Shown here one piece after another: positions 13,354 through 60,293 of a stretch of 64,000 nucleotides of DNA (position 1 is the stretch's first letter; the number at the start of each line of letters is the position of its first letter). The stretch spans positions 8,505,959 through 8,569,958 of the forward strand of contig NC_092647.1 in assembly GCF_039555335.1 (NCBI RefSeq). The letters are read 5' to 3'. Source of the DNA: Amphiura filiformis (Eukaryota > Echinodermata > Ophiuroidea > Amphilepidida > Amphiuridae). The notes below the pieces were generated by a model that worked only from the letters and a program-made list of their open reading frames with translations, was not told the DNA's origin and did not search any database. The position numbers and the translations under genes are program-made.

Positions 13354-14090
13354 TTATTTTTTTAACTTCCGTATATTCATATAAATAACTGATTTGTTTT
13401 TCTTCTCTTTGCTAGTATCTGATTGTTTTTCCCCATTGTGTTTAGATACCTCCTTACTATCTGATGCCTTATTATTATTCTTCATGACTTGAATGTTTGA
13501 ATACTTGTGCGATTCTTGAGCTTTTATCGTCGATGGATTTTCTATTTTTGTATCAGGTGGAAATGAATACTGATCTTCATCTGCATCAGATATATCATCA
13601 TGTCTGCCATCACTAATGTTCGATGCGTCGGCTGTTTTATTCATTGTGTATACTTTTGAGTAATACTCATTTTCCGAGTCTTGGCGTTTCGGTGATTTAA
13701 TATTTGAGTCGCTTTTCCTGTCAATTGCATCAATAACATAATCCGACTCATCGGCTCCTTCTTCAACTTGCATATAATAAGGGTTTTCTTTAGGTGTCCG
13801 CTGAGCACCAACTCCGTCATTTTCTACTACTTGTATGTAATAATTATTTTCTGTATCAGATTTTCGGCGCTGTTCGTTCAGGTAGCTTAGTCTTGGACTA
13901 GACTCTTGAACAACTGAGTAATACTCTTCGCCGCCATCTTTTCGTCGAGATTTCGTTTTCGGAGACATGCCTACTCCATGTTGCACAGCAGAAATTCGCA
14001 CTGCTTCGGGACGGACATAGTTGTAGCTGAGACCACTTGGATCACGCCTTGGATTGAGTCCCGGACTATTTGAGTTGCTATCAATGTCAT
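13354..14090 (-). CDS. Receptor A last exon: YYxxV-repeat cytoplasmic tail
   Basis: The acceptor is AATGCCCAG at 14091 and the stop is TAA at 13354-13356. The 244 residues are hydrophilic and rich in Lys, Ser, Asp and Asn. Tyrosines recur as EEYYSVV, NNYYIQVV, NPYYMQV, NEYYSKV, KYSNIQV and IYMNI, with YVRP near the exon start. NPYY fits NPxY; YMNI and YSNI fit the YxN Grb2-SH2 consensus; YVRP fits YxxP (Crk-type). The regular YYxxV spacing suggests internal duplication of a phosphorylation module. An AATAAA hexamer overlaps the stop codon on the minus strand (13353-13358). Confidence 0.88.
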
Positions 14091-14189
14091 CTGGGCATTA
14101 AATAAAACATAGAACAAAGTTCATTTTAATAAAGTATTGAATTAAATAAATCGCTTTAAATAAAATATTACATTAAATGATTTGCTTTG

Positions 14190-14845
14190 TCTTAAGGGAT
14201 CTGAAATGAGCGTTTTGAGCGTTTCGACAGTATTTTTATGGAACATGAGAGCACCTCAGACGTATCGAATTGCATTCTGAATACGAAGCATGTCTTTCTG
14301 ATATCAAATAATTTTCATTTTTGAAAATCACGATATAATACAAATTTTATGACAAATTATAAAAATTTGATATTTTTCAAATTTTGATATATAACAGTCC
14401 TCGAAGTAAATTTTATAAATCTAATGATATATTCTTAAAGTGTATGTAGCTGGGAGGAAAAGCCGACGATCAATTGAAAATTTTGACCTTTCATATTGAA
14501 GATATGGATTTTTTCCCAAAAAGACCTAATTTTTTTGGTGTTTTGGGGAAAAAATCCATATCTTCAATACGAAAGGTCAAAATTTTCAATTGATCGTCGG
14601 CTTTTCATCCCACCTACTTTACACGTTAAGTATAAATCATCAGATTTATAAAGTTTACTTCGAGTACTGTTAAATATCAAAAATATCAATTTTAATGATT
14701 TGCCATAAAATGTGTATTACATTGCGAATTTCAAAAATCAAAATTATTTGATATCAGAATGACATTCTTCGTATTCAGAATGCAATTCGATATGTCTGAT
14801 GTGCTCTAATGTCCCACAATAAATACTCTCCAAACGTTCATACCT
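14190..14845. mobile_element. Long foldback MITE, copy 1 (intron of receptor A)
   Basis: Arms of about 310 bp mirror each other around 14525: for example GACGATCAATTGAAAATTTT at the left and AAAATTTTCAATTGATCGTC at the right. A second nearly full copy lies at 62494-63052, and end fragments at about 49535-49600 and 54725-54856. No transposase. Confidence 0.88.
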
Positions 14846-15611
14846 CTTCCCTTAAACCATTCGTATAGTATATGCCTACTTGATTCGATAAAAGATATTC
14901 ACATATATTTTTGTAAGCTTATAGCAGCACAATATGTTGTTAGTGCGTGACGGTGTTCCCCGTTTAATTTAAAGCCCGATGACCATTTTGTTGTCAAGGA
15001 AGAGGTAACACCACGCAGTAGTGCAGCCAGGTTTTCGCAGGGGGCACAAACAGAATGACTTATGGACAAATGTGCAAAAATTTGCAATGTTAATGCTTAA
15101 ATGTGCCAACATTTGTTTAATTTGTCACTTTGTACAAATAAAAATGGAAACCAGCGACGTAAAGCACAATATTAAATCGATACCCAATTTGATTTGATCC
15201 GAGCTGCTAGAAGCATTTGAAATATGTGACCGTATCGTGCGAAGGTGTTGCGGTGAGACTTTGAAACCTTCTCTGGTCTATCTGAAGTAGGCCCTATCCT
15301 ATACGGTATTATCACAACTATATTTGAAATACTTGATTTTATCAGAATTGCAATCCCGGGTTGCGGTGTCAGATCGAGATAAGCGGTATTATTAAACAAA
15401 CACCAGATTCATCATGTACATTTCAGTGAGCAAATATACAGACTACTATTACCGTTTTACATGTATTTAATATAGAAAACTGTAGTTTTGTTGCTCAGTG
15501 TTATTGGCTGCCACGCCCAATTGGGTCTGTAATAATTAAAAGAGGAATACCGACCGCAGTACAAAAGCTATCGGCCCAAATGTTGGATACTTTATACCAA
15601 AATTAACCCGG

Positions 15612-15651
15612 AAACAGTCGAGTAGCATTTTTAAATGCTACTCGACTGTTT
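15612..15651. repeat. Perfect 19-bp hairpin
   Basis: AAACAGTCGAGTAGCATTT pairs perfectly with AAATGCTACTCGACTGTTT across a two-base loop. It lies in the intron just downstream of the receptor A micro-exon donor on the minus strand. Confidence 0.9.
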
Positions 15652-15673
15652 ATATTAAAATATTGACACTTAC

Positions 15674-15717
15674 CATCAGGCCTTATAGGCACAGGTGGGG
15701 GACTTTCTCTTTCGTCC
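15674..15717 (-). CDS. Receptor A juxtamembrane cytoplasmic exon
   Basis: A 44-bp micro-exon, acceptor AATTTCAG and perfect donor GTAAGT, phases 2 in and 1 out. It encodes DERESPPPVPIRPD. The PPPVPIRP stretch is a proline-rich motif that could bind an SH3 domain; that is inference from composition. A 19-bp perfect hairpin lies about 22 bp downstream of its donor. Confidence 0.78.
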
Positions 15718-16131
15718 CTGAAATTAATATAAGAATGTAAAGCAAAATATCTGCATTAACAATAAAACTTGCAACATCTTTTCGTTGGTAATGGGAAAAA
15801 ATCACACTTTCATGACTTTAAATCACTCATTGCTGCTATATCAGACACAATACTAAGCAGTCAGATGAATACGAATGTATTCTCCCTATCTCCTGATATC
15901 AGATGAATATAAACATGAAAAATAAAAGCCAATGCTGCCATGTATTTGCCCTGCCTCCCCTCATCAAACTTTTGGGGTTTTTTTTTTCTATTTTTTGTTT
16001 TTGCAGACATGCCAATTATTCGCAGCTATTTCGTTGTTAATTCTACTCTTCTCCCTCATTGGAAGGCCAAGGTTGCATGTTGCTAAAATGACATATTATT
16101 TTGCTTGGACAATGATTTGCCTCTAACGTAC

Positions 16132-16291
16132 CTCTCTGCATCTATCCTTTCCATGCGTTTCTGGTACAGGACCAGTGCCAATGCAATGAGGAGCAGTACC
16201 ACGAGTAATGCAGTGAGACCAAGCCCAGCTGCTAATGCTAAGTTAACATTCGATGATGGTCCACCACCCTCAGGAAAAGCCTCTGTGATGT
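16132..16291 (-). CDS. Receptor A transmembrane exon
   Basis: A 160-bp exon, acceptor TTCTTTGCAG and donor GTACGT, phases 1 in and 2 out, as in the membrane exon of receptor B. It encodes a Gly/Pro/Ser lead-in, then a Leu/Ala-rich helix (LALAAGLGLTALLVVLLLIA, continuing to LVLY) and a basic stop-transfer QKRMERIDAE. One clear single-pass helix. Confidence 0.9.
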
Positions 16292-16599
16292 CTGCAAAGA
16301 AACAAGTAATTTAAACAGTATAGTCATTATTTCATTTATCATCTAGACTGCGTGTTTTATCTAGAAAGATAGAAACAATGTAAAATATAATTTCATTTCA
16401 CTTCTTCAAAGCCATTACCATGATTACTGAATTGAAAAGTTTTAAATGTAGATTTAAAATTTGAGATTAAACTTGTCAGGTTCGTCAAGTTTAATTGTAA
16501 ATTAATTGCAAAATTAATCTTCAACAAATCTTACTAAATTCAAATATTTTCCTTTTAACTATTAAAAACGCAAAGCAATGCAATTTTAATCTCGCTCGC

Positions 16600-16690
16600 C
16601 CAACAAGCGAGAGGTCGGGGATTCAAGTTCCCGCACAGGCAGGTATATCCGGAGTTTTTACTCTGGTATATCTGCCTATGCATGTTATAT
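16600..16690 (+). repeat. SINE-like fragment with a tRNA T-arm
   Basis: GGTCGGGGATTCAAGTTCCC contains a B box with a perfectly paired T stem, but no A box or other tRNA arms. It is followed by an inverted pair (GGTATATCCGGAG / CTCTGGTATATCTGCC). Confidence 0.45.
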
Positions 16691-16915
16691 TTCCATTTGT
16701 AAATTCATGTTTAAATGTGCTAGTGTGAGATGCGTAATTCTTCTTTCCCCCGTATATTGATATATTAAGAATAAAGCATCATTAATTTGATCTCGTGCGC
16801 TAGTTTGTAATGTTTCCATGTTCCAGTATATGATGCGTAAGCCTCTTCCTCTGTTTTTATTAATAATACATGATTATTATAAGTGTTATTATTATTATTA
16901 TGATTATTATGATTT

Positions 16916-17099
16916 AGAGAATAAATGATAGATTTTGTCTTTTGCCTATACAATATCGTGTCATAATGGATGGGCTGGCCAATATTTTGAGTAGTGGATG
17001 CCGGCGCAGCCGGTATCCACTACGATAAAAATATTGGCCAGCCCATCCATTATGACACGATATTGATAGGCAAAAGACAAAATCCTATCTTTTATTCTC
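16916..17099. repeat. Near-perfect 184-bp palindrome
   Basis: Arms of about 90 bp mirror around 17008 (GCCGGCGCAGCCGG at the centre), with only a few mismatches. Words such as ATAATGGATGGGCTGGCCAA occur in the left arm and their complement in the right. Intron of receptor A. Confidence 0.92.
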
Positions 17100-17154
17100 A
17101 ATCTTATTCAGTTTTAATGTAATTTTTGCTAGAAAAACTGCCCTTTTTCAGACA

Positions 17155-17410
17155 AAAATAAAGTTACTTTTGAGGACATCCCCGTTGTTTTAAATGAACG
17201 AAACCATCACGAACATCTAAGCCGCCGAATCGCGTTCTTAGTTCTCGCACGTGTATTACGCGAACGCATTATCGCGTGATCACAAGCGTGCCGCCGTTGC
17301 GTGGCGGCGCGCGCCCTGACTAATATCACTATCAACTATTGTGAGATATTATACACCAGAAAACCAATCAAATTACGTGAATTCTTTACAAGACGCACCC
17401 ATTGAATAAG
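17155..17410 (+). repeat. Inverted repeat arm 1 flanking receptor A stalk exon 2
   Basis: Sequence containing GAGGACATCCCCGTTGTTTT and CGCCGTTGCGTGGCGGCGCG is reverse-complemented at 19065-19325 with few differences. The arm is GC-rich compared with its surroundings. Confidence 0.9.
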
Positions 17411-17875
17411 AATTATTATTAAATAATGTTTTATTTAGAAACAATGCATTCAACTTGTAATGATAACAATAAAATTCCCTATAGCTTTTCAACTGCTACA
17501 TGTATGTACAGCAGATCAAAGTTCATATTTGAATAAGTATAAGAATTGTTATAGTTATGTTGCACGAATGTAAAATGACGCTGAAAGATACAATGTAAAT
17601 AGGGTTTATCATATCTGTCATGGCATCTACAATACCATAGTTTCTTTACTTTGAACTTGACATACCGGTACAATATTTACACAACCACCCCCACAAAACT
17701 GTATTTAGAAAAAAACATATTTTTTGACTTTCAAGATATCGTCGCGTATTTATCTAAAAAAAAATTTCAGGACAACATAATGCTAATACAATTGGTAACG
17801 GTTTTACAACATTGTTACAATGTTTCAATGTCACAATGATTGTATGTATAAGTAACGACACAATTGCAGTTATAC

Positions 17876-17961
17876 CTGTAACATAAATACCAGTTGCTGA
17901 TGTAACAGTCCTGTTGATGTTATCTGTTGTATCCATAGTTGATGACTTCAAAATGGCAAAC
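17876..17961 (-). CDS. Receptor A stalk exon 2 (Thr-rich)
   Basis: An 86-bp exon, acceptor TTTTGAAG (AAG, less usual) and donor CAG/GTATAA, phases 2 in and 1 out. The 28 codons include KSSTMDTTDN and the sequon NRT, a Thr/Ser-rich membrane-proximal stalk like exon 4 of receptor B. It lies between two inverted-repeat arms at about 17160-17410 and 19065-19325. Confidence 0.68.
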
Positions 17962-17993
17962 CTTCAAAATAAAAACAACAAGATTAAGATTGT

Positions 17994-18225
17994 TAAGGGT
18001 AGACGAGGTATTGTTGGTCGAAGCAACCTAAAAATCGATTTTCAATATCTAGATCAATATATTATTGAAAATTAATACCTTGATGTTTTGCAAAAGTTCA
18101 TTCTACAAATCGTATACTTTGCAAACTTGCTTAATTTATTGTTGTTAATGAGTTATGTACGTTTTACAAAAAAGTGTTGTTGTTTCAGCCCTCTTTACAA
18201 CGTAACTCAAGAACCGCAGCACCTA
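17994..18225 (+). repeat. Dispersed repeat, inverse copy at 62045-62270
   Basis: AGGGTAGACGAGGTATTGTTGGTCG and following words recur as reverse complement near 62270-62045, including the part GAGTTATGTACGTTTTACAA. Confidence 0.75.
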
Positions 18226-19064
18226 TAAAAGTATATCTGTGATATTTGAATTCTTCTACACACTCGCTATGAATTGAGCAATGCAGCTTTTGCCAAAGTT
18301 CCCTACCATTCGTAAGATGCTGTGAACTACCAAATCACAACAGTTTAAAATAATTAATAACCTTAACAATGTTGTTTTAAGGTGGTAACAGTCCCAGACA
18401 AACGAGAACCTAGACCAATAACTTTGACTCGCGTAGTGAAGCCGACACTGCTTAGCAACGAATTTGACAAGGACGCATACCCGGACGCAAACAAGCAGAC
18501 ATGTTCGCGTCTATGGAACATGTTGCATTTGACGCGGCGAAAACGGCGCAGTAATCACGCAAACACGAGCGCGTCAAACATGTATGCGATATTTCTCCGC
18601 GCCTAGTAACCCCGTCAATCCGTCTATATCACCTTGGATACGGGGCTTCACCTCCCGCTGTGGTAAAGGATGGGCAGTAATAGGTCTAGGTGGTATGTCT
18701 ATGGTAACAGTGACCTGCACTTTACAAATCAACATTGAGATTTTGTCATCTGAAAATTATGATTCGAGGGCTCAGAACCAGAAAGCCGTAACTCAAGTTG
18801 GTTCCTTGCTCTGGTCTTCAAAAATCAATATGTTTCCTATTGAATTTTGTCGTGATTAATTGACTGTATTTTCTATTGTTCGCTGTCGACTTTGTGCTCA
18901 TTTTGCGGGAACAGGTGATTGTGAGTTGAAGCTTTCTGGCTCTCAACCCTCGATTAATGTTTGCATCCATTTATCTCCAAATTCATATAAATATGGAATG
19001 GTATTGTTCAGTAACTTCAGTTTCGTGATTGACCTCCGTGTAAAAGGTAGAAAATATTATGAAT

Positions 19065-19325
19065 TCTTATTCAATGGGTGCGTCTTGTAAAGAATTCACG
19101 TAATTTGATTGGTTTTCTGGTGTATAATATCTCACAATAGTTGATAGTGATATTAGTCAGGGCGCGCGCCGCCACGCAACGGCGGCACGCTTGTCTCCTC
19201 AATGATTGCGCGATAATGCGTTCGCGTAATACACGTGCGAGAACTAAGAACACGATTCGGCGGCTTAGATGTTCGTGATGGTTTCGTTCATTTAAAACAA
19301 CGGGGATGTCCTCACAAAAGTAACT
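19065..19325 (-). repeat. Inverted repeat arm 2 flanking receptor A stalk exon 2
   Basis: Reverse complement of 17155-17410. The 1.65 kb between the arms holds stalk exon 2 and two exon-like stretches (18381-18433 and 18633-18714). Confidence 0.9.
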
Positions 19326-20030
19326 TGTTTTATTAAAATTGTTCAATAGTGTATAATGTAACATAATACAAAATAATGAAGAACCGCTTTTTTATATTGA
19401 AATTCAGGTAAATCAATTTTGATTGTAAGAATTCATCCATGTACTTGGAGACACTTTGGACACTGTATACAGGTTTTCACATTTTTATTATCATATAAAT
19501 GAACCGATGTGTGCATATTTGATACATTTTGCATCTTTTTCCACTGGCATGCTATTTTACATAGGAAAAACTAGTATGTCTGATCTTATTATAATGACAC
19601 CCAAATCATGTGCCTGTTACATGTTTATGTCTTTTGTTCCCCGGTATGGGCCTATACAAAGTGCATTCGGCCGAATAAAAAAGATACATATTTAGCGTCC
19701 AGGATTTGGAAGGAAGAGGTGCTTTTTTTCTCTTTTATTTTCTTTCTGAAAAATTGTGGAAAGCCCTATTTGGTCCGCTTTTGCATACACTATAATACTT
19801 TTTATTTTGTTTTTCTGGTAGGTTAGGCCCCTCTACTGATCACAAAACTTCCTTGAAATGTTTCTAATACATTTTGTAAGGCTATAGAATTTCTCAAGCA
19901 TCTTCATTAGTTATAACTTAAATTAAAAGAAAATTTAAAGAATCTTCAAAAAACGGAAGCGGGAGGGACGCTAAACATGTTTTTTACTCGTTATTTTAGG
20001 TTATACTTCTTGAATCGAATAATTCCATAC

Positions 20031-20094
20031 CTTGTCGACGTAGACAGAGACGGAGATATCTGAGACGGCTGGGGTTTAGGTCCTGGTCGCTGCC
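20031..20094 (-). CDS. Receptor A stalk exon 1 (first exon identified)
   Basis: A 64-bp exon, acceptor ATACCACCAG and donor GTATGG, phases 1 in and 2 out. It encodes QRPGPKPQPSQISPSLSTST, a Pro/Ser-rich linker. It corresponds in phase to the Cys-rich exon 3 of receptor B but has no cysteine. The acceptor is preceded by a T-rich tract (GTTGTTGTTGTTTTC). Confidence 0.6.
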
Positions 20095-20247
20095 CTGGTG
20101 GTATACCGAAAACAACAACAACAGACGATACGAAAATGCATAATTGCATACCACAATGATTCTGCTTAATTCTCAAATTCATAATAACATGAATGACATG
20201 TCTCTTTTGTTATTCATATCACGAACATCACCAACCTTGAAACTAGT

Positions 20248-23300: not shown

Positions 23301-23520
23301 GTCTGTTCAGCTCATGTGTGTGTGTGTTTAATGTAAAAATCTAGCAATTTGACCTGCACGTCACCATTAGAGTTTGAAATTTTAAAAACCTTCCTTTTTT
23401 TACATAATAAAGTGATTTTTGAGAGGCTACTGAGCTGAGATCGCCACACTCCTGTTCAAACGTGGCTGAAAAACATGTCTGTTGAATGTGCAATTATGTA
23501 TAGGCATACTTTGAAAACGC
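20380..23520. other. Non-coding spacer with one GTGTTTA-type MITE
   Basis: Apart from the MITE at 21207-21570 and a roughly 45-bp direct duplication near 22625-22690 (GAGACTAGT(A/G)AACCAACAAT), no gene, RNA or repeat is recognised. Confidence 0.5.
21207..21570. mobile_element. MITE with GTGTTTA-rich arms
   Basis: Left TACTACAATCC and right GTGTAGTA ends enclose arms that mirror each other (TAACACTTTTTAAACACTGC and its complement). The interior repeats GTGTTTACTTT words. Confidence 0.78.
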
Positions 23521-24352
23521 AGTGATTTAATAGTGCGCTATGACACACTGACTTTACAAGAATTCCCTGACCACTACGGGCAAGGCACACCATATAAACC
23601 ATTTACCAATAGTCAGGGACTAACAGTGATTTAATAGTGCGCTATGACACACTGACTTTACAGGAATTCCCTGACCACTACGGGCAAGGCACACCATATA
23701 AACCATTTACCAATAGTCAGGGACTAACAGTGATTTAACAGTGCGCTATGACACACTGACTTTACAGGAATTCCCTGACCACTACGGGCAAGACACACCA
23801 TATAAACCATTTACCAATAGTCAGGGACTAACAGTGATTTAATAGTGCGCTATGACACACTGACTTTACAGGAATTCCCTGACCACTACGGGCAAGGCAC
23901 ACCATATAAACCATTTACCAATAGTCAGGGACTAACAGTGATTTAACAGTGCGCTATGACACACTGACTTTACAGGAATTCCCTGACCACTACGGGCAAG
24001 GCACACCATATAAACCATTTACCAATAGTCAGGGACTAATAGTGATTTAACAGTGCGCTATGACACATTGACTTTACAGGAATTCCCTGACCACTACGGG
24101 CAAGGCACACCATATAAACCATTTACCAATAGTCAGGGACTAACAGTGATTTAACAGTGCGCTATGACACATTGACTTTACAGGAATTCCCTGACCACTA
24201 CGGGCAAGGCACACCATATAAACCATTTACCAATAGTCAGGGACTAACAGTGATTTAACAGTGCGCTATGACACACTGACTTGACAAGAATTCCCTGACC
24301 ACTACGGGCAAGGCACACCATATAAACCATTTACCAATAGTCAGGGACTAAC
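23521..24352 (+). repeat. 104-bp satellite, eight tandem units
   Basis: Units start at 23521, 23625, 23729, 23833, 23937, 24041, 24145 and 24249 with AGTGATTTAA(T/C)AGTGCGCTA. The period is exact and the copies differ at only a few sites. Each unit contains TCCCTGACCACTACGGGCAA and, inverted, AGTCAGGGA, so it can fold. The flanking sequence (24353-24470) is related to 30030-30150. Confidence 0.95.
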
Positions 24353-25294
24353 AGTGATTTACAGCTAAGAAACGCATACCTGCACACCCTATTCAAACTA
24401 CAATAAATCATCGTAGCCAGGATCAGCTCCCCGAGTTCTCGTGCATGTAACCGAGACAATTAAGCAGTTATAGTTCCTTGTCCAAGAGTATGTTAATTGT
24501 TAATTTAGCTTAGTTATTCCAAAGGTGTCAAAATTATAGTTTACTATTATGTTTGCCATAAAACGAAGTTTATGCTGACCATATTTTCTGCGCAATATTC
24601 GAGCCCAGAGAGTATGGTGATCTATTCCAACAAATTAACAATTTCAGTATATCACATCAAAAATTCAAAGTCCATACAACAAAATAACTATAATAGGACG
24701 TTCAATAATTAAGTGAATTATAGTAATTGTACATTGTAATTGATTGGTTTCCGCTCGATTCTGTCATCTTGTCATGCTTGTTGTTGATTTGTTTACTTTG
24801 TTCACCAACTGTCACCACTATAATGACACAATACCTGATTACGATGAGTATTGCTCTCGCAGTTTAGTTCAGTACAGTACAGATCAGTTCAGTTTTATTT
24901 TATCAATTTGGGGATTTTACCTACTATTATGTGTATTATAGCGGTAGCTGTTGATAATTGTGTGTTTCTGCATACAGAAAATATACACAATACATATATC
25001 GATTTTGACTTCATGCTGACTTCGGCGCACGTGGTCACCGGCTTGCCAGGTACCATTTTTCTTGTGAAGACACTCTGGATTCTTACAATTTATACAAAAA
25101 CTCCACATAGAACCCCTAAATAACTTTAGATTACCATAAAAAACAGTAATCTTAAACGGGGCTATGTGTAATTTTTACATAGATTTTCACCATCTTTTCA
25201 TTCTTCATTTTCACTCATATTAAAATATGTCTTCTAAACCATATCAAATGTACCGCGATTGAGTATCACGAATCGTTATATGATGTACAGCTAA

Positions 25295-25917: not shown

Positions 25918-25943
25918 TGTTAATAATAATAATAATAATAATG

Positions 25944-25978
<35 letters not shown>

Positions 25979-25988
25979 AATAATAAAC

Positions 25989-26068
<80 letters not shown>

Positions 26069-28890: not shown

Positions 28891-29810
28891 TTAGTTCTCA
28901 GTGCTGTCTCTACACAGTTCGCTGTACATATTATCACTATCAGAGCTTTCAGCAGTATCTCTCTTCTTCCCCTCCCTCACAAGAGTAGAGTATTTACCAT
29001 CTTCTTCCGCCAGTGTTAAGCTACTGGTTGAATGCAGCGCATTGTATGTATTATCCGAGCATGCGCTGTCGATACTAAAGCTACGCCCTTTTGGATCACA
29101 ATGCAATTTTTCGTAGCAAGTGAGACTATTTGTCTTCATCGGGTTGTCTTCAATGATCTTAGGAGCCTGTGTTTCTGAGTCATCACATACAATCTCAGGG
29201 ATTCTTGTCAAAGAGTTAGTTTGACAACCTTCTGCAGAAGTTAGAGATCCGTTGGACTTTTTACGATGCGGAAGCGGCAAAGTAGTAGCCTCAAAATAAT
29301 GCGCGTTGTCACCTTCAAAATCTGATGAAGCCGCGGAGTTTTCTTTGTGTTCATCGACTCCTGAATCAGCAGAAGACAAAGACACACCTGATCTGCTGCC
29401 AGAATCAGTGTCATCGTGCCCAGTCGAAGACCCTATTTCTGAATCGCTCTCATGACTTGATGTTCCGCTGCCGCTACTCAATGCGTGTCCATATTGAAGA
29501 TCTGTATAAACGGCACTGCTGCGTAATTCCGTATAGGGCATCGAATTAGATGTGCCTTGGTTGTTGTCTTCTAATTCGAAATACGCCACAGCTTCGCTAG
29601 GTGGGGTGATGCTGACAGCCTGACTCTTAGGACGGACTTCAGCATACAGATTTTCAAATTGTTCATCGGGGTCTTTGGCGATAACGACGAGACCACGTGT
29701 ATCAGCTTCGGAGTAGACATCACATGCGGCATTATTGGTGAATCGGTTATTGAGGGAGTTTTCCTTGCTTACATTGTATATGGGATTTGCTAGATCTGGG
29801 TTCTTCTTTC
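28891..29810 (-). CDS. Receptor B exon 7: long tyrosine-rich cytoplasmic tail and stop
   Basis: The acceptor is GCTTACAG at 29811; 305 residues run to a stop at 28891. The tail is acidic and Ser/Asp/Glu-rich, with no Cys-rich or enzymatic domain. Tyrosines recur in YxxPhi contexts: YNVS within NPIY, YAEV, YFEL, YTEL, YTDL, YEKL, YNAL, YSTL and YSEL. NPIY is an NPxY (PTB-binding or endocytic) motif, and YxxL/V sites resemble ITIM/ITAM half-sites or AP-2 sorting signals, though most lack the canonical -2 residue of an ITIM. A Ser/Gly/Asp-rich low-complexity linker (about 29370-29470) separates two Tyr clusters. A role in recruiting SH2 or PTB proteins is inference. Confidence 0.88.
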
Positions 29811-30340: not shown

Positions 30341-30426
30341 CTTTGTGGCTTTCTGCAGTGATCGCCACATTAGCGTCAACGTCTACGTAGTAATATGCAT
30401 GTCGCTCCTTGTTATGCATATCATGC
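30341..30426 (-). CDS. Receptor B exon 6: juxtamembrane cytoplasmic exon with YYYVDV
   Basis: This 86-bp exon has acceptor CTTTGCAG and donor GTAATA, phases 2 in and 1 out. It encodes 28 complete codons, including HAYYYVDVDAN, a tyrosine cluster at the start of the tail. It matches in position and phase the 44-bp exon at 15674-15717 of receptor A. Confidence 0.82.
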
Positions 30427-31376: not shown

Positions 31377-31394
31377 TCCAACTCCTTTAATGAC

Positions 31395-34091: not shown

Positions 34092-34250
34092 GGTTAGGGT
34101 TAGGTTTAGGGTTAGGTAACCGTGTTAGGGTTAGTGTTAGGGTTAGGGTTAGTGTTAGTGTTAGGGTTAGGTTTAAGGTTATGGTTGGGTAACCGTGTTA
34201 GGGGTAGTGTTATAGGGTTAGGAACCTTAACCCGAACCCTAAAAATGCGG
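34092..34250 (+). repeat. Degenerate interstitial telomere-type repeat
   Basis: Runs of GGTTAGGGTTAG with variants (GTGTTAGGG, GGTTTAGGG) over about 150 bp. TTAGGG is the usual animal telomere unit. The array is degenerate and internal to a gene, not a chromosome end. Confidence 0.85.
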
Positions 34251-35338: not shown

Positions 35339-35607
35339 CTTTTAACTCCGGAGATAAAGATGCTACTGTAGTTCCTTCCTTTAATTGGGTTGTGTTTGTC
35401 ACAGCGCCATCAGACCCATTACCACCCACACTTCCATGCCATGTAGTCATCACGATGGTCTCATCGCTTGGACTCGTTTTGCTTGGTTTTTGTGTACTCG
35501 TTGTTCTAGGTGGCGCTGTTTGTCTGGCTGTCAATTTCACAGTAATTCGTTTTTGCTGTGTTGTCACTGGTGATGTTGTTGGAGCTTGAATTGGAACTGT
35601 TGCTAGT
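35339..35607 (-). CDS. Receptor B exon 4: Thr/Pro-rich stalk
   Basis: This 269-bp exon has acceptor TTTAAACAG and donor GTGAAA (a weak donor), phases 2 in and 1 out. The 89 codons are rich in Thr, Pro, Ser, Lys and Gly, as in PTTSPVTTQQ and RTTSTQKPSKTSPS, and contain an N-glycosylation sequon (NTT). This is typical of an O-glycosylated, extended stalk next to the membrane. Both flanking exons join in frame. Confidence 0.8.
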
Positions 35608-36726: not shown

Positions 36727-36803
36727 CTCGAACACGAGATGATGGAGGTGTGACAGAACATGTCGGTGTCTGTCCGTTGCAATCACAATACCTGCATTCA
36801 GCC
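36727..36803 (-). CDS. Receptor B exon 2: small Cys-rich exon
   Basis: This 77-bp exon has acceptor CTCCAG and a strong donor GTAAGT, entering in phase 2 and leaving in phase 1. It encodes AECRYCDCNGQTPTC followed by a Ser/Pro/Arg linker. The CxxCxC spacing recalls the core of von Willebrand factor C modules but is too short to assign. With the LCPW end of exon 1 it makes a small extracellular disulfide-rich unit. Confidence 0.75.
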
Positions 36804-41771: not shown

Positions 41772-42650
41772 CACAGTAAAAAATATTTTAAACAACTGTT
41801 TAAAATTTTTAAACAACACTGTTTACGCCGGTCACTCTAACAACTTCTGTTCAAAGTTTAAACAACATTGGGTTGTTTAAACTTTAAACATCAATTGTTT
41901 AAAATTTTAAACAATTTTTAAACAACAGTTTTTAAACATCTGGGTTGTTTAACTTTAGTTGTTTAAATGTACACAGTTGTTTAAAGTATTTTAAACAACA
42001 AATGTTTAAAACAAACAGTTGTTTAAAGCTGTTCATGGCTGTTGTTTAAAACAATTGTTTAAAACATACATAGTTGTTTAAACTTGTTGTTTAAAAGTTT
42101 TAAACATTTTTATTTGTTGAAATAAATTTACTTGGGAGAATGGGCAAGAAGAACTGACTGTAACATGCACATCAGCCCCATGCATCTGTGCATGAACAGT
42201 GTGAATTTGATACATTCAGAGGTAAGTGTTTGGTTTAAATATTATTTGATGTGGTTAAGCTTACACTCACACTGTACTTGTCACGGCTGCATACTACTGC
42301 ACAGCTTGCATCATTTAGCATGTACAACACACAACTGTGTGTTCATATAATACTCTATCACATCAAACAATATTTAAATCAAACACTTACCTCTGAATGT
42401 GTTAATTAGGTCTGACATTTCCCACTTTTGGAGCAAGTCAATCACATAGCCATCCGCCATGATGATGAATCTGACCCTGATTTCAAGAAAGGAAACCCCT
42501 CTTTCGATCTTTTTTAAACAACGTTTTGATATTATTCATGAATTAAACACACACTGTTTAAAACTCAAGGACTGTCTTTTAATCAATGTTGTTCAAAATT
42601 TGAACAACATCGTTTTAAACAGCGACATTTTAAACAGTGTTTTTGCTGTG
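41772..42650. mobile_element. TTGTTTAAA-rich MITE inserted in a LINE at TA
   Basis: The ends CACAGTAAAAAA and TTTTTGCTGTG are flanked by TA on both sides. The left 350 bp and right 150 bp are built of TTGTTTAAA / TTTAAACAA words. The middle (42203-42400) has its own inverted pair around CATTCAGAGGTAAGTGTTTG. No transposase; the TA target suggests Tc1/mariner-type mobilisation. Confidence 0.88.
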
Positions 42651-43220
42651 TACATTCAAGCAGACTGCCATCAGCATGTGATCGTAGGAACATACCATTA
42701 GAAAATGTGTGAGATTTTAGGAGATGTTGTATGTACAGTGGTGTTGTTTCATAAGCGAATGTGAGTAGTTTGTAGGTAATACGCTCATTTACTAAAAGCC
42801 AGTGAAGCTCTTTCAGCAGAGGAGTGGTGTGTTCCGTACGGTTTGCCTTGAAAACAAGTCTGGCAGCTCTGTTTTGTATCTTTTGTAGTTTTTGTGTGTT
42901 TTTTACAGTTGTTCCATATAATAAAGAGTTACAATAATCAATTCGAGAAATAACAAGTGAGCGGACAGCATGGTTGCAAGTATCTTTATCAATATAACAG
43001 CGAATGCGTCCTATATCATGTATATTACGAAGATGATAATTTAAAAGAGCGAGAGACAGCAGATATTTGAGATGACATAGACATGGTTGAATCAAAAAGA
43101 ACTCCAAGGTTGCGTACAGAATCAGATGGTTTGATAATTGTTCCACATACGTTAAGAGTTGGTTCATATATATATTTCAAATTATATGCAGAGCTAAGTA
43201 AACAAATATAGTCTGCAAAA
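42651..43220 (-). pseudogene. LINE reverse transcriptase C-terminal fragment
   Basis: Recognisable conserved words are VRNLGVLFDSTMSM, the LRNI.RIRCYIDKD region, SRIDYCNSLLYG, LQKIQNRAARLV and LLKELHWLLV, the usual order downstream of the RT domain in CR1/Rex/Jockey-type elements. A frameshift lies near 43030-43060. The FADD catalytic motif is not preserved. Confidence 0.88.
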
Positions 43221-43582
43221 ATGAAGACTTTAGGTGCTGTAGTTTTGTCAAAATCCGAGATTTTGAATAAGACGTCGGAACCGTCGTGTCGTTTTATTAT
43301 TACGATGGAAATATTAGTCGAATGCGTATGCGATAACAGAGTACGTGACACGGCGTACGGGATGACATACACACACCCACACATCAGAGGGTCGTACCGT
43401 ATTACAACCGCTGGAGTAACTTGTATTGACGCTAGTAGTAAATTCCAATTTTCTTTGCTTTACCTCACTTGTTCGGCTCAAAATTAAACGGGGACATATC
43501 TGACAGTTAAAGCTAACATTTTATGGAAAATAAATACTAATCTATTTTTACAGAAATGTTATAATATGGCTTTAAGTAGAAT
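43205..43582 (+). repeat. Dispersed repeat, inverse copy at 63221-63580
   Basis: GGTGCTGTAGTTTTGTCAAA to GAAATGTTATAATATGGCTT is found as reverse complement near the right end of the window, including the CGGCGGTTGTAATACG-type segment. It adjoins the LINE remnant. Confidence 0.88.
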
Positions 43583-53215: not shown

Positions 53216-53769
53216 AGTATCGAAGCCCGGTATCGAAGTTACGTAATGTTACTATGTCAACGGGATCACGCGCTTAAGTAATGAACCACGATCGAAACAA
53301 TCAGTACACAAAAAAGGCATACCAAAATAGCGTGATCGTAATAATCGCCATACAAACAGTGCTTGGTTCCGATACCATCACGGAGTTATGTAACTACTTC
53401 GTGGTCTGATAGTTATATGATCAATGGTCTGATCTACTTGGGTTCGATAGAAAAGAAAAAATAGCTGATCATTTATAATGCATAAATGAATAAAGTAATG
53501 TAGTTACACAATTTGAAACATTGAGGCCGTTCTATTTTTCAAAGGTCATTTAACTGTTAAATGTAGTGGAATATATCACGCATTGATAGGTAGCAGGTGG
53601 AGCAAATTTTGTCAGCGGATTTTGTTGCCGTTTGTTCGCAGTGCCTATTTATCTATAAAAAAAATAAGAAAATTTAAATTAAATTTAAAAAAATTCACAA
53701 TATTCGTTCGTAAAATGGGGACAAAATCCAAAAACATTTCTTGACCCTTCTTCACATAAAAGTGGGGGC

Positions 53770-53846
53770 AGAAATCAAGATTCGAACACGTAGCATTCAC
53801 CATTCAAGGCGCACCCTCTACCGACTGAGCTAACAGGTCGTCAGAC
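53770..53846 (-). repeat. tRNA-like segment 2
   Basis: The minus strand reads TTAGCTCAGTCGGTAGAGGG (A box) then GTGTTCGAATCTTG (B box). D and T stems are imperfect; a pseudo-tRNA or SINE head. Confidence 0.5.
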
Positions 53847-55449
53847 AATAGAAGGGTGTAATTTTGAACTGAAGAATATTAAAAAAATATGAAGAAATTA
53901 CAATGTTATAAAAAGATTTACCAAAATGAGTTAGGTATAACGTTTGAATCGATTTACAAATTAAGTCCAATGGCACTTTGAGAAAGAATACCTGAAGAAA
54001 CCCCAAAACATTTGCTGCTCTAGCAACTAACCTAGTGACCTAAAGTATTGGGTCATGTCACGATATTTTTTCTGAGCCATTATGTCCAGGTTGCTCAATT
54101 TAACATACACGTATCCTTAATGCTGTTGAGATTTTACAAGGATGGCGCTCTCACATTTCTAAGAATCCAAAAGCGCCATTAGGCGAACGTTTACGGTATT
54201 GGGAAATTTCAGAAAAATTGTTTTTTTGTGCATACAAAATATAATGTAAAATGTTTTACAAAAATAAAAGCAAACTCAAAAAACATTTTTATTTCATAAA
54301 TTAATTATTAAAATATTTTTAATGATAACATCATGAAAATAATAAATCAATTCATATTAATTACAGCTATTTTCCCGCTATATCAGAGTCAGGTCAAAAT
54401 GCCTTAAAACAGCTCTCAAAAACCGGAAGTTACAATGCCGATTGGCTTTAATATTGTTGACAAGGCTGTGTAATTGTTGATTGGGTGCCTCATATATTTG
54501 ATCAATAAATGGGTAAATGACCAATAACTGTCATTTATTTGGTTCACGAAGTCATGCTGAAGGAAATTTTGCCTATGAAACTTTCACCTACTTCTAGTAT
54601 TACTGCCGGTGATCATATCCTGTATATTGTAACCAATTGTCAGCAACAGAAAAGAACTCTTGCTCGGACCCTAGTAAATAGGGATTTTTTGTTTTGTTTT
54701 TTCTTTTGGAAGTTTGAAAAATGAATAATTTGCCATACAATGTGTATTATATCACGAATTGAAAAAAAAATCAAAATTATTTGATATCAGAAGGACATTC
54801 CTTGTATTCAGAATGCAATTTGGTGTGTCTGATGTGCTCTCAGGGTGTCACGAAAACAGCTTTCTAATTTAGAACACTGTGTCAACGACAAAAAATTGTT
54901 AAGACAAGGATTTTAACCAAGATCAACTGAAACGCGGTTTCAGGATTCTTTATTCGAATAATGTCTAGTTCCGCTGTGACAAATTCGAGTAACAAACGAT
55001 GTTCATTTATACACTGACAAATGATTGGGAAGTCAGTTATTATTTCATTGAGATGCTCAAAATAAAGCATTTTGCTACATCACAAACAAAAGAAATACCC
55101 TTTTCACCTTGAGCTCAATTCAATTTGATGATAACAAACATGATATGATCATTAAGGTTACCCGTACAAACCACAAATGTGAACCACCGTGAGTTTACAC
55201 ATATTATTAACCTGCTAACCAGGTGACATATTTAGAAGTTTACATGTACGGAATTTTCTTGCAATATTATTTTGCGATAATTTTATGCCACAAATTGGTT
55301 GTGTGCTCCACCGTTGTTAAGTTCCCAGTATAGTTTTTAAAGTTTGGTAATGGGTGTGTGGATATCTTTCTTAATCCTAGTTTCGCTTGTTACGTATACC
55401 TAGCTCTAATATTGTATTGCAGTATGAAGCGAAAGTGTTTTGATATCAA

Positions 55450-55538
55450 ATTAATTGAGCCCGTATTTATTGGCCGAGCTATGAGATAAAATATTGGACG
55501 AGACACAGTCGAGTCCAATATTTTAAAACTCATAGCGA
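55450..55538. mobile_element. Left half of a MITE split by a LINE insertion
   Basis: It matches the reverse complement of 48086-48298 up to ACTCATAGCGA, where the LINE begins. The other half starts at 58575. Confidence 0.82.
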
Positions 55539-56526
55539 AAGGGAGACATTGCTGCAGTGTCGGGGAGCTGAAAATTATCTTTGCCAACACCTGCAACCCC
55601 GGTTGCAAAGAATCAGTGTTTAACGTGCTGTTTCTGGTGTTGGATTTCCCATTGGGTGCTCTCAGGTGCGGGCTGATATTTTACCAGAGTGAGAGAATGA
55701 GCTCCCTCTGCCTCCCTAGCTCAGTTGTTGAACATGCCAGCTTTAGGGCAGAGGAAACCATCAGGTTCAACAGCCAGTATGTCCAAATGTCTTGGCCATT
55801 TGTTTTTGCTACTGTAACGACAGCCAGCGACACAATCATGATGAGATACTGCTCCGTTTTTTCCCCTTCTAGTTACTCATATCTTGGTGTTCATGGCATT
55901 TGTAATAACAGCTTTTAAAGAGCACTTGTGAGTTATGTTCCGTCGGACTTTGTCCTTAAACTGCTAGAGAACAGTGCGGTAAGATCAGGTGCTGTTTTTC
56001 TGGTAGGGCTAGTTTAGTTCCAAGGTCTCTTACTATGAACATCAAGCTCCATCTTCGTTTTCTTTAGTATTCGAAGAGGTCATGGACGGTAGTTTTTCTC
56101 TTCATATTGGAGTAGCCTATTTCAATGGCTCCGAATTTTCATCATAGGCCAAAGAGCGGAAGAAGCAGATTTACTTCTCAACGGTCATTAGGCTGGTGTT
56201 GAACATGTCATCATTGGTCAACCTTCCAACACTGGCCAACATGTTCCAGATCAGGGGCGAACTACTGCATATTGGTATATCTTGGCTGCTGTGTGTCAGA
56301 AATAAACTGAAACAGGGCTGATCACCCGTAAAGCTGCTGGGTCTGGACTAAAATAATTCCCTGCAACTCAATGATTACGAAAACTACAAGCAAATCTCCA
56401 AAACATAAGGAGGGTAGATGATCGGCAGTCTACTATTGACTTCATGACGGACCAGCGGGAACTCGGTACACCATCACGAACTGTTGGTCCTGATTATTGT
56501 CGCCTGTCTACCTTCAAATCTCTTGT

Positions 56527-57270
56527 AATATCTACTTATAATGTCCGTACTATAAATCAAAAAGGGAAAATCCATCAGCTATTTATGGGCTGTGCTGATG
56601 CAGGTATTGACATTGCCGGAATTCAAGAACATCTTCTCATTACACCAAGCCCAACTGATGAACTTTGGTCAGACGATAGGAACTGGGTTTTAGTATTCAG
56701 TTCTGCTGAGTGGGTCTGGCATTGTCCAAGCACGTTCACAGATGTCTTAAGAGTGTTGAAGCTGTTTCTGAGAGGATACTATTTGTAACATGTCATGGTA
56801 ACCCTCAGCTTAGCATCACTGTTGTATATGCACCCACTGAGTGCCGGACTGAGTGCTCTGACAAGGAGGAATTCTATTCATCTCTATCTGATCACTTGGA
56901 TGGTTTGAAAAGGCACAACGTCCATCTCATCCTCGGCGATGTTAATGCCAGAATAGGAACTGATAGTCCCATCCTTGGGTGATTGGTCCATACTGCTACC
57001 ATGATTAAACCAATGACAGTGGTGAGCGTCTGGTCAACATTTGCCAGGAGTACAACCTCTGATCGGCCCAAATGAGATTCCACCAACCCAGGAACCGTCT
57101 CTGGACTTGGACCCATCCAGCTGGATCAACCCATGTACAGTTAGATCACATTCTAATAAACAACAAGTGGGTAAATTCTCTCCGCAACTGTCGAGCATAC
57201 AATTCAGTAGAAGTGGACTCCGATCATCGTATTGTGAGCGCCCGTCTAGCTGCCAGTCTGCGAACAAGCA
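56527..57270 (+). pseudogene. APE-type endonuclease domain of the RTE-like LINE
   Basis: Readable in three frames: STYNVRTINQKGKI and DIAGIQEH, then VVYAPTECRTECSDKEEFYS and GDVNARIG, then LDHILINNKW and DSDHRIVSARL. QEH, GDVNA and SDHRI are the usual metal-binding and catalytic motifs of LINE endonucleases. Confidence 0.88.
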
Positions 57271-57344
57271 AAGGAAAACCTAGCAAGATACCAAAATTCA
57301 ATTCAAGTTGCAAGATCCTGATACAAAGTGGTTCACTTATTTCC

Positions 57345-57840
57345 AGTGCCGCAAAAGTGTACAACAAGATCCTTCTGAACAGGATTCGACCTCACATTGA
57401 TCCTTTATTGAGAAGCAACCAGGCGGGCTTTAGATCAGGTCGAAGCTGCTCAGCAAATACACATTTTGAGGAGGATCATGGAAGGCTTCAAAGAGTACCA
57501 ACTTCCCTTGGCAGTCACTTTTGTGGACTTCAAAAAAGCCTTCGACTCCATCAACAGGTCCGTCGTGTTCTCAGTGCTGCGGCATTATGGAATACCAAAG
57601 GTTGTGGTCCATGCCATCCAGGTACTCTACAAGGACTCCAATAGTGCCGTTATGGTAGATGGAAGTATCTCAGAACCTTTCCAAGTAACAACTGGAGTGC
57701 TTCAGGGTGATGTGTTGGCACCATTCCTGTTCATTATCCTGGTAGACTACCTCCTGAAGAAATCAACTTCTGGAATTGTTACCTACCCATCCTGCTAGGA
57801 TGCTTGAATGACCTGGATTTTGCTGATGATATTGCCCTGT
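57345..57840 (+). pseudogene. Reverse transcriptase domain of the RTE-like LINE
   Basis: Contains NQAGFRSGRS, VDFKKAFDSINRS, a TTGVLQGDVLAPFLFIIL segment and, after a frameshift near 57800, FADDIALLES (about 57818-57845), the YXDD-type catalytic box. Frameshifts and a stop near 57797 make it non-functional. Confidence 0.9.
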
Positions 57841-57959
57841 TGGAATCTTCTATAGCCCGGGCCCAGTCACAACTTACTAGGACTGCAACAGCAGCAGCAT
57901 CAGCGCACCTAAGACAGAATATATGACTGCAACCTGTAACGCCCAGCCAGCACTATGGT

Positions 57960-58565
57960 AGCACCATCAACCATGTCACAGACTTCAAGTACTTGGGTTC
58001 CAAGATGGGCTCTCGTGTTGGAGACCTAAAAAGAAGAAAAGCACTAGCCTGGGCCGCTCTCTGAAAACTGGAACGCCTTTGGAGAAGCTCATCCCTGCCA
58101 ATCGAAACAAAAATCAAGCTGTTTGAGACCACTTGTGTTACTGTTCTTCTGTACGGGTGCGAGTCATGGGTAATCACCAAGGACATGGAAACCCAGATCA
58201 ATGCCTTTGCAACATCTTGCTACAGAGTCATGTTAAACATCAAGCGTGTGGATCGGATTCCAAATGAAACCATCTACAATCTGACCAACACCACTCCACT
58301 AGTTGCCAGAGTCAAGATTCATCAACTCAAATTTCTCGGTCATATTTTGCGTCTTGAAGACGGCGAGCCTGTGAAAGAATATGCCCTTTATATTCCACCA
58401 CATGGGAAGAGGAAACCAGGACGGCCACGCATACTGTACTTACAGTATGTAAAGCACCTGCTGGGAGATACTGAAGGAATGCTGCAGCCAAACAAAATTG
58501 TTTCGCTTGCCCAAGATGGCAATAGTTGGAGAAAGCTTGTAGTCGCCTGCTCCGCAGCCGACTGA
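57960..58565 (+). pseudogene. C-terminal region of the RTE-like LINE
   Basis: FKYLGSKMGSRVGDLKRRKA, then IKLFETTCVTVLLYGCESW, then HGKRKPGRPR and a final WRKLVVACSAAD before TGA. These conserved segments follow RT in such elements. Confidence 0.85.
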
Positions 58566-58574
58566 TGATGATGA

Positions 58575-58674
58575 GCAAGACCAATAAATATTGGGCGTAA
58601 AGCATCCAATTTTATCATTATTATGAGTTGGATCCAATATTTTCACACAACTGGATTCATCAAAACATTATATG
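58575..58674. mobile_element. Right half of the split MITE
   Basis: Continues the MITE from GACCAATAAATATT through AAGCATCCAATTTTATCATT to CATCAAAACATTAT, matching the reverse complement of 48086-48190. Confidence 0.82.
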
Positions 58675-59179
58675 GTAAGATCAGGACGGAAAGCGTGGCA
58701 GTCACTGTTCAACCCTTTCTGGAACCTGTTTCCCGTTGAACTGCAAATAATTCAAATGTCGGTTATTGTCCCCTTGGAACAACCACACTGATTTTACGAA
58801 TGAAGAAGGTGAGCTCGAAGTTCATCAGTTCATTAAGTTAACAAACACTTCTGCACTCTCCTTAACTTAATACAGAAGCTTAACCTGGTGCTTAATATCT
58901 GAAACCTGTGCAAGATAACTATTATAATCCGTACTTCGTTATATATTAACTGTCACTAAATATGAAATTGAATACAACACTGATCCCAAAGCAATGAATC
59001 TAATAAACTACCTAGTCCTGATCATGAGATACCTGTTTACTTGACGGAAGAAGATGAAGGAAAAAGATCATATCCATGATCTGAAAACTATCAAGGATAT
59101 ACGCTTAATATCATCGGACAAAAAATACCCCGAGGGGGACAATTGCGCGAGTGTCTAAAGGTGCATAAACTCGATATAT

Positions 59180-59266
59180 GAGACTCGAAACTCGAGACTC
59201 GAAAATTTGACTCGAGACTCGAAACTCGAGACTCGAAAATTTGACTCGAGACTCGAAACTCGAAGA
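59180..59266 (+). repeat. 34-bp tandem of GAGACTCGAAACTCGAGACT
   Basis: Units start at 59180, 59214 and 59248 (the last partial). Each contains two ACTCGA(G/A)ACTCGA cores and AAAATTTGACTC. Confidence 0.88.
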
Positions 59267-59344
59267 TAAGCAACACACGGTGGAGATAATATATTTACCA
59301 ACGGAATATATTCTTGTTAAGGAATCGGATAGCAACACTTGCAC

Positions 59345-59575
59345 AGTATATTTTGTGGGGCCTGAAAAATTTGACTCATCATATTGTTCGTGGTGGGAAT
59401 CTTAAGAATAAAGTAGCAGCAAAATGAGTGAAAAGAACTCGGTTTTGATTGAATTGTACTCAAATTGACCAACAGTTGAATGTAATCAATATTGAGTTCT
59501 ATTTGACTCATTTTATTGTTCTACTTCCTTTTTACTCGACATTGAGTAACTTTTTTTTTGTTTAAGAGTGCATCC
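59345..59575. mobile_element. MITE-like palindromic repeat related to 26175-26335
   Basis: Mirrored words around CAATATTGAGTT and (A/T)TTTGACTCATTTT; the same centre and arm words occur near 26270. End points are not sharp. Confidence 0.55.
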
Positions 59576-59699
59576 CACTAATAGTGATAAGAAAGTTTAT
59601 TGTCCAAAGATGAGTTTGATTGCTTGTTATTTATCTACAACACTATTATTTAATTAAGAGCCGATGACTCTGAGATTAAAATATGCTGCCCCTTTACTA

Positions 59700-60020
59700 G
59701 AGGTTTGGCGGCTCTGAAAAGAGTTCTTCAAGTGGATTGCCCCTTGTCCACTGAAAGGTCGGTGGCTCTGAAAAGAGTCGTTTATTGTATGCGCTCTGAA
59801 AAGAAACCTTCAAGTTGGCTGTCCCATGTCCATTAAAAGGTTGGTGGCTTTTTTTATTATGTATAAGGCCCCTTTACTAAAGATACGGAGTCTCTAAAAA
59901 GAGCTGTTCAAGCAGACTACCCCTTGGGGATTGGTCGTGGCTCTGAAAAGAGTCGTTTATTATTTAGGTGCCAGGCTCTTTACTGAAGATTCGACGGCTC
60001 TGAAAAGAAGCCGCTCAAAC
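59700..60020 (-). repeat. Diverged stem-loop repeats of the 8-9.5 kb family
   Basis: On the minus strand, histone-hairpin-like words recur: near-complete GACTCTTTTCAGAGCC at 59764-59779 and 59939-59954, weaker forms at 59710, 59793, 59889 and 59999. TGCCCCTTG / CCCCTTG words between them match the 88-bp unit. It lies within 60 bp of the receptor B exon 1 donor, inside intron 1. Confidence 0.75.
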
Positions 60021-60072
60021 AACTAATATAAAGCCTATCGAGGATTATATTTATAATAGCATATATACTCAC

Positions 60073-60293
60073 CATGGGCATAGATCATATAGAATACCCA
60101 GCTCCCGTCTATCCTGTAGCAATTCTTGTAATTCACCGGGCTCCTCTATATCTATGTCCAAATAATCATAATAGTATTCGCTAGGCATATTTCCAATATC
60201 TTCTGTAACTTTGGAACCTTTAGATTCCACATGATGTGTAAAAGGTACAAACATGAATGAAGTCACCATCAAGGCGTGGTATAAGGACTTCAT
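60073..60293 (-). CDS. Receptor B exon 1: signal peptide and acidic tyrosine cluster
   Basis: The ATG at 60293 has A at -3 and opens a 73-codon exon ending in TG before a GTGAGT donor (phase 2). The first 20 or so residues are a short hydrophobic run (ALMVTSFMFVPF) after MKSLYH, which fits a signal peptide cleaved near residues 20-25. It is followed by EYYYDYLDIDIEE, an acidic Tyr cluster of the kind that Golgi tyrosylprotein sulfotransferases modify, and then a charged helical stretch ending LCP. The split codon (TG plus G from exon 2) gives Trp. Alternatively, this is exon 1 of another gene whose later exons were missed. Confidence 0.6.

What the first reader, a model, noticed from the sequence alone, without database searches (positions are those of the whole stretch)
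13354..60293. Two tandem tyrosine-tail receptors with identical exon-phase architecture
Receptor A and receptor B lie head to tail on the minus strand. From the stalk to the stop, exon entry phases are 1,2,1,2,1 in both: linker or Cys exon, Thr-rich stalk, membrane helix, short juxtamembrane exon, single large tail exon. The sequences are otherwise very different, yet both tails are dense in Yxx(V/L/I) sites and have an NPxY motif. This suggests an old duplication of a signalling receptor whose tails diversified, perhaps a lineage-specific, possibly immune-type receptor family. Phases and motifs are seen; shared origin and function are inferred.
Basis: partly seen in the sequence, partly recalled or inferred. 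Interest (0 to 1): 0.82.

Follow-up and report, generated by a model that had tools for sequence, protein, structure and literature searches.

The report
Neighbouring tyrosine-tail membrane receptor genes
Two neighbouring animal genes appear to encode small cell-surface proteins with long tails full of tyrosine docking sites, probably an old duplicated pair of signalling receptors, but their shared origin and any immune role remain unproven.

Summary
The 3' halves of both predicted genes hold up. A scan of both strands for membrane-helix exons in any phase gave two rows on the minus strand: B (32602-32452) and A (16291-16132), both entering in phase 1 and leaving in phase 2 (at its thresholds). 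Each leads into a short juxtamembrane exon (2 to 1) and one large tail exon. Both tails are far richer in Yxx(V/L/I) than shuffles. The five-phase series is only partly secure. For A, three junctions are good, the stalk exon has weak donors, and the "linker" can be either an internal exon or the end of a signal-peptide first exon. The tails show no sequence similarity and use different motifs: (E/N)xYYxxV four times in A, Yx(E/D)(L/V/I) six times in B. No known domain, solved structure or relative was found in what was searched; no animal proteome was available. Best reading: two tandem single-pass receptors that signal through phosphotyrosine docking, possibly old duplicates; 'immune' is a guess. 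New member of a known kind.

The parts
60073..60293 (-). Receptor B exon 1: signal peptide, then acidic tyrosine-rich stretch (possible sulfotyrosine, EYYYDYLDIDIEE); exit phase 2
   Evidence: ATG at 60293, donor 10.0 bits; link to the next exon across 23.3 kb is inferred
36727..36803 (-). Receptor B short Cys exon, phases 2 to 1
   Evidence: acceptor 9.3, donor 11.9 bits
35885..36110 (-). Receptor B Cys-rich exon, phases 1 to 2
   Evidence: acceptor 8.1, donor 6.0 bits; no Pfam or PDB match; AlphaFold2 mean pLDDT 47.7
35339..35607 (-). Receptor B Thr-rich stalk exon, phases 2 to 1
   Evidence: acceptor 8.7, donor 6.5 bits
32452..32602 (-). Receptor B membrane-helix exon, phases 1 to 2, ends in CTCSC (possible palmitoylation)
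   Evidence: acceptor 9.4, donor 6.5 bits; one of two minus-strand rows in the membrane-exon scan; codon score is not coding-like (P 0.885)
30341..30426 (-). Receptor B juxtamembrane exon, phases 2 to 1
   Evidence: acceptor 11.9, donor 6.6 bits, best of four candidates
28891..29810 (-). Receptor B tail exon, enters phase 1, stop included; NPIY, six Yx(E/D)(L/V/I), DSGSRS
   Evidence: acceptor 9.3 bits; 318-codon open frame against a longest Markov ORF of 193 in 30 runs
20031..20182 (-).
   Evidence: donor 8.8 bits, open upstream to TAA at 20212; tentative
17876..17961 (-). Receptor A candidate Thr-rich stalk exon, phases 2 to 1 (alternative donor at 17891; internal ATG at 17936)
   Evidence: acceptor 7.1, donor 4.5 or 3.9 bits; its acceptor is used in 16 of 24 listed chains; codon score P 0.052; tentative
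16132..16291 (-). Receptor A membrane-helix exon, phases 1 to 2
   Evidence: acceptor 9.5, donor 9.6 bits
15674..15717 (-). Receptor A juxtamembrane exon, phases 2 to 1, with SH3-type PPVPIR
   Evidence: acceptor 6.8, donor 10.0 bits
13354..14090 (-). Receptor A tail exon, enters phase 1, stop included; four (E/N)xYYxxV units, one being NPYY
   Evidence: acceptor 5.7 bits; 247-codon open frame

Best explanation
These are two neighbouring genes for single-pass type I membrane proteins whose tails act as phosphotyrosine docking scaffolds. B has a signal peptide, an acidic tyrosine-rich N-terminus, a small Cys-rich domain, a Thr-rich stalk, a membrane helix with membrane-proximal cysteines and a long tail. 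A has the same membrane, juxtamembrane and tail exon plan with, most likely, only a short Pro/Ser/Thr-rich ectodomain. In the proposed mechanism, clustering at the cell surface lets a Src-family kinase phosphorylate the tail. Yxx(L/V/I) sites then bind SH2 proteins, and the NPxY or NxxY sites bind PTB adaptors or drive uptake, as in CED-1. The differing motif sets suggest that A and B recruit different partners. The gene models of the 3' halves are shown by sequence; phosphorylation, partners, ligands and common descent are inferred.
For: In-frame models with fair to good splice sites. Two membrane exons on the minus strand, both phase 1 to 2. Tyrosine motif excess: A 8 against 2.1, B 10 against 2.0. 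(E/N)xYYxxV 4 in A against 0.01 expected; Yx(E/D)(L/V/I) 6 in B against 0.34; 0 of 20000 shuffles each. No kinase or other enzymatic domain by Pfam in the joined B product, in A from its internal ATG, or in the three minus frames of 13-58 kb (the same kind of scan found RVT_1 on the plus strand). CED-1 precedent for NPXY plus SRC-1-phosphorylated YXXL (PMC9388098, passages seen).
Against: No transcript data. A's N-terminus is unresolved. Tails show no sequence similarity. The ITIM pattern is not above chance in either tail (P 0.10 and 0.43), a single NPxY hardly is (P 0.07 and 0.04), and no canonical ITAM is present. The motif patterns were chosen after seeing the tails. Yxx(V/L/I) and NPxY could be endocytic signals only.
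Confidence: 0.6

Rival explanations
1. A and B are unrelated membrane proteins that happen to be neighbours. The shared phases reflect coincidence and the common 'stalk, helix, short exon, big tail exon' plan of type I receptors.
For: No tail similarity; different motif sets; three secure junctions match by chance about 5% of the time (ratio from PMC7259759); no Cys exon was recognised for A.
Against: Same strand, adjacent, same membrane/juxtamembrane/tail plan with exon lengths 151/160, 86/44 and 920/737; the only two minus-strand rows in the membrane-exon scan and the only two minus-strand frames with eight Yxx(V/L/I) (the next has four in 94 codons).
Confidence: 0.35
2. One gene with alternative 3' ends: the B signal peptide, Cys domain and stalk are spliced either to the B or to the A membrane/tail cassette, giving one ectodomain with two signalling tails.
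For: B stalk exits in phase 1 and both membrane exons enter in phase 1; the joined reading frame is open throughout. No convincing ectodomain exons for A were found between the two cassettes.
Against: B has its own stop and possible poly(A) signals from 1437 bases downstream; A has a tentative leader and stalk of its own in matching phase; a phase 1 fit alone is common.
Confidence: 0.12
3. A is a transmembrane adaptor (LAT/LAX/PAG-like in layout) rather than a receptor: short extracellular piece, helix, long tyrosine tail.
For: ATG at 17936 inside the stalk exon with A at -3 and G at +4; codon score in frame from that ATG is coding-like (P 0.015); three YxN sites.
Against: YxN is not above chance (P 0.14); the CxxC palmitoylation motif recalled for several of these adaptors is absent from A's helix and juxtamembrane exons (sequence); the stalk frame also reads open upstream of that ATG to the acceptor.
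Confidence: 0.22
4. The tails are mainly trafficking tails: YxxPhi binds clathrin adaptors and NPxY drives endocytosis.
For: Motif shapes fit; NPxY near the membrane in B.
Against: Eight to ten sites with a recurring local context, Yx(E/D)(L/V/I) or (E/N)xYYxxV, seem more than endocytosis needs (judgement).
Confidence: 0.2

Closest known systems
CED-1 / Draper / MEGF10 engulfment receptors
   Same: NPxY plus YxxL tail sites; CED-1 NPXY binds CED-6 and its YXXL is phosphorylated by SRC-1 and binds NCK-1 (PMC9388098, passages seen)
   Different: No EMI or EGF domain by Pfam (that these define the family is recalled); many more tyrosine sites; no canonical ITAM, as is also said of CED-1
Botryllus fester co-receptors (FcoR)
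   Same: Long tails with a core Y-x-x-I/L/V motif, genes lying next to partner receptor genes (PMC12065747, passages seen)
   Different: FcoRs carry Ig and sushi domains; none found here
CEACAM paired receptors
   Same: Clustered genes sharing exon layout, with tails of different signalling type (PMC2110893, passages seen)
   Different: CEACAM tails span several exons, and a phase 0 intron splits the first YxxL of the ITAM; Ig ectodomains
Transmembrane adaptors (LAT, LAX, PAG; layout recalled)
   Same: A: short ectodomain, helix, tyrosine-rich tail
   Different: A may have a leader peptide and lacks the CxxC motif; no comparison with animal proteomes was possible

Membership tests
ITAM receptors | YxxL/I-x(6-8)-YxxL/I | tested here: not met
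   None in A or B; B has YFEL-x12-YTEL and YTEL-x5-YTDL only
ITIM receptors | (I/L/V/S)xYxx(L/V/I) in the tail | tested here: inconclusive
   Two in A, one in B tail (a further B match lies in the signal peptide); not above shuffles, P 0.10 and 0.43
CED-1/Draper/MEGF10 | NPxY and YxxL sites in the tail | tested here: met
   B: NPIY and several YxxL. A has NPYY but YxxV/I rather than YxxL, so A meets it only in part
CED-1/Draper/MEGF10 | EMI and EGF-like ectodomain (recalled) | tested here: not met
   No Pfam match in B product or Cys region up to E 10 other than EphA2_TM at 0.013, below its cut-off, over the helix
Botryllus FcoR | Ig and sushi domains | tested here: not met
   No Ig or sushi match in B; A gave only Ig_Rha78A_N at E 4.3, far below cut-off and inside the tail; three minus frames of 13-58 kb empty at E 1
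Receptor tyrosine kinase | Kinase domain in the tail | tested here: not met
   No Pfam or PDB kinase match
Transmembrane adaptor (LAT-like) | No signal peptide, very short ectodomain (recalled) | tested here: inconclusive
   A start unresolved
A and B as paralogues | Detectable sequence similarity | tested here: not met
   Score 39 against shuffle mean 45, P 0.8
A and B as paralogues | Matching intron phases | tested here: met
   Three secure junctions match, a fourth tentatively

The most novel reading that the evidence does not exclude
A single locus in which one Cys-rich, possibly tyrosine-sulfated ectodomain is spliced onto two interchangeable membrane/tail cassettes with different phosphotyrosine grammars (YYxxV arrays against Yx(E/D)L arrays), switching the signal without changing the ligand.
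Probability: 0.1. Interest if true: 0.7.

Novelty: new member of a known kind. Interest (0 to 1): 0.42.

Why it matters
If the pair is real, it shows an animal receptor locus whose exon plan stayed fixed while the tails were rewritten with different tyrosine motifs. That would be a test case for how signalling output diverges after duplication. It would also add a receptor type without a recognised ectodomain module to the tyrosine-tail receptors known from invertebrate recognition systems.

Tried and rejected
Whole-genome search: none held for this window, so copies outside the window could not be sought. Inside the window no third tail was seen: the four other stop-to-stop frames with four or more Yxx(V/L/I) are 50 to 130 codons long, and the one with eight (10889-11278, plus strand) reads by eye as low-complexity sequence. 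Pfam scans of all three minus frames from 13 to 58 kb found nothing up to E 1; for 58-64 kb two of three minus frames were scanned; 1-13 kb on the minus strand and most of the plus strand were not scanned except as single ORFs and one frame of 43-58 kb. In one search A was scanned from its internal ATG (328 aa), not with the leader; it gave two weak rows, DUF7269 (E 0.2) and Ig_Rha78A_N (E 4.3), both below cut-off. PDB search of the B juxtamembrane and tail gave 8 rows: six polyubiquitin chains (best 1.9e-7; in the three shown no stretch passes alone) and two RING2 chains (E about 0.03), set aside as chance; the Cys region and A tail gave none. Related loci: none confirmed for the B Cys exon in viral contigs, the B tail in bacterial and archaeal genomes or the A tail in viral contigs; these are not animal genome collections, so this says little. 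AlphaFold2 of the B Cys exon alone gave pLDDT 47.7, too low for a fold search, so none was run. The 250-bp inverted pair around A's stalk exon was considered as one long-terminal-repeat transposon; no target-site duplication was seen by eye. An LRRNT-like reading of CRYCDCNGQTPTC was considered by eye and dropped for lack of a Pfam match. Codon scoring separated exons poorly: of seven trained exons short enough for a P value, four scored above 0.05, B's membrane exon P 0.885. In one search the row for A's stalk from its internal ATG was one base out of frame; it was redone (P 0.015 instead of 0.875), which raised the adaptor rival from 0.20 to 0.22. Splice scores use approximate matrices recalled for animals, not trained on this species. 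One search had exon ends off by one and was redone. Papers: seven searches; four papers seen as passages only. No claim is made that this family is absent from print.
Full report
What was checked. The window is 64 kb of about 36.6% GC, with introns and reverse-transcriptase relics, so it is animal-like; no genome is held for it and the species is unknown to me. I rebuilt both genes from the sequence with approximate splice-site scores.

Entry phases are 0,2,1,2,1,2,1. Donor scores run from 6.0 to 11.9 bits and acceptors from 8.1 to 11.9. Of 3602 GT sites on the strand 65 reach 7 bits and 244 reach 5; four of B's six donors lie between 6.0 and 6.6. The protein has a leader, an acidic tyrosine-rich stretch, 14 cysteines from residue 72 to the stalk, a Thr-rich stalk, a helix ending in CTCSC and a 335-residue juxtamembrane-plus-tail region. 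The first intron is 23.3 kb and carries a LINE relic on the other strand; it rests on phase fit and donor strength.

Receptor A. Helix exon 16291-16132, juxtamembrane exon 15717-15674 and tail exon 14090-13354 are fairly sound. A scan of both strands for exons of 80-260 bases that hold a membrane helix, in any phase, with both splice scores at 5 or more, returned six rows: on the minus strand only the A and B helix exons, both phase 1 to 2; on the plus strand four rows in other phases. Upstream of the helix the evidence thins. The stalk exon 17961-17876 (or -17891) has a fair acceptor and weak donors. If that is right, A is B without its two Cys exons, which together keep the frame. But leader-like ORFs with such donors turn up about twice per 64 kb in Markov sequence (mean 2.1, 20 runs; none on the real plus strand), and a second one at 28009-27887 has the same donor score. 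The stalk could also hold the start of A, at ATG 17936, in good context and with a coding-like codon score (P 0.015).

Tails. Tail ORFs of 318 and 247 codons exceed the longest of 30 Markov strands (193). Yxx(V/L/I) counts are 8 against 2.13 (A) and 10 against 1.99 (B). The two tails use different local grammars: (E/N)xYYxxV four times in A against 0.01 expected, Yx(E/D)(L/V/I) six times in B against 0.34 and none in A; none of 20000 shuffles reached the counts of four and six. These patterns were picked after reading the tails, so the figures overstate. A's best internal repeat pair scores 38 against a maximum of 35 in 30 shuffles; B's best scores 35 against 34. B has one A-like YYxxV in its juxtamembrane exon (552 of 20000 shuffles reach that). 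Neither tail has a canonical ITAM; ITIM matches are at chance level and a single NPxY is near it. A carries an SH3-type PPVPIR; B carries a DSGSRS, which I recall as a beta-TrCP-type degron.

Common origin. Alignment of the juxtamembrane and tail regions scores 39 against a shuffle mean of 45 (P 0.8, 500 shuffles): no similarity. Using a phase ratio of 5:3:2 (PMC7259759, passages seen) three matching junctions have a chance of 5.5%, four 2.1%, five 0.8%, without correction for how the pair was noticed. Adjacency, orientation and layout add weight. I put common descent near 0.6.

Function. No Pfam family reaches its cut-off in either product; B's best is EphA2_TM at E 0.013 over the helix, A's (scanned from its internal ATG) DUF7269 at 0.2. 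The Pfam scan with stops as X found RVT_1 on the plus strand, so it can find domains in such reads. With no enzymatic domain and dense tyrosine sites, docking of SH2 and PTB proteins after phosphorylation is the most likely working mode; CED-1 gives the nearest worked example (PMC9388098, passages seen), and Botryllus fester co-receptors show the same core Y-x-x-I/L/V motif in invertebrate receptors (PMC12065747, passages seen). I file the pair in neither family, because their ectodomain modules were not found. Immune use is a guess.

Verdict.

Noticed in passing
56375-58565, + strand: Degenerate LINE with reverse transcriptase (RVT_1, E 3.9e-11) lying antisense inside B's first intron.
   Followed up: partly
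42586-43459, - strand: Open frames that look like the C-terminal part of a CR1-type reverse transcriptase (by eye and recall); 42586-43176 gave no Pfam match.
   Followed up: partly
23520-24361: 104-bp minisatellite, 8.1 copies, 98% alike, between B's tail and A's leader candidate.
   Followed up: no
7899-9634: Recent tandem duplication with about 868-bp spacing, 99-100% alike in its main blocks.
   Followed up: no
34092-34222: Telomere-like GGTTAG array inside the intron between B's stalk and helix exons.
   Followed up: no
17168-17421 and 19055-19317: Inverted pair of about 250 bp, 95% alike, flanking A's candidate stalk exon; no target-site duplication seen by eye.
   Followed up: partly
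12133-12210, + strand: ARAGORN calls a tRNA-Trp but Rfam at gathering scores gives no match; perhaps a tRNA-derived relic.
   Followed up: partly
28009-27887, - strand: Leader-like ORF with a strong donor (8.8 bits), exit phase 0, just downstream of B's stop; rival first exon for A or chance.
   Followed up: partly
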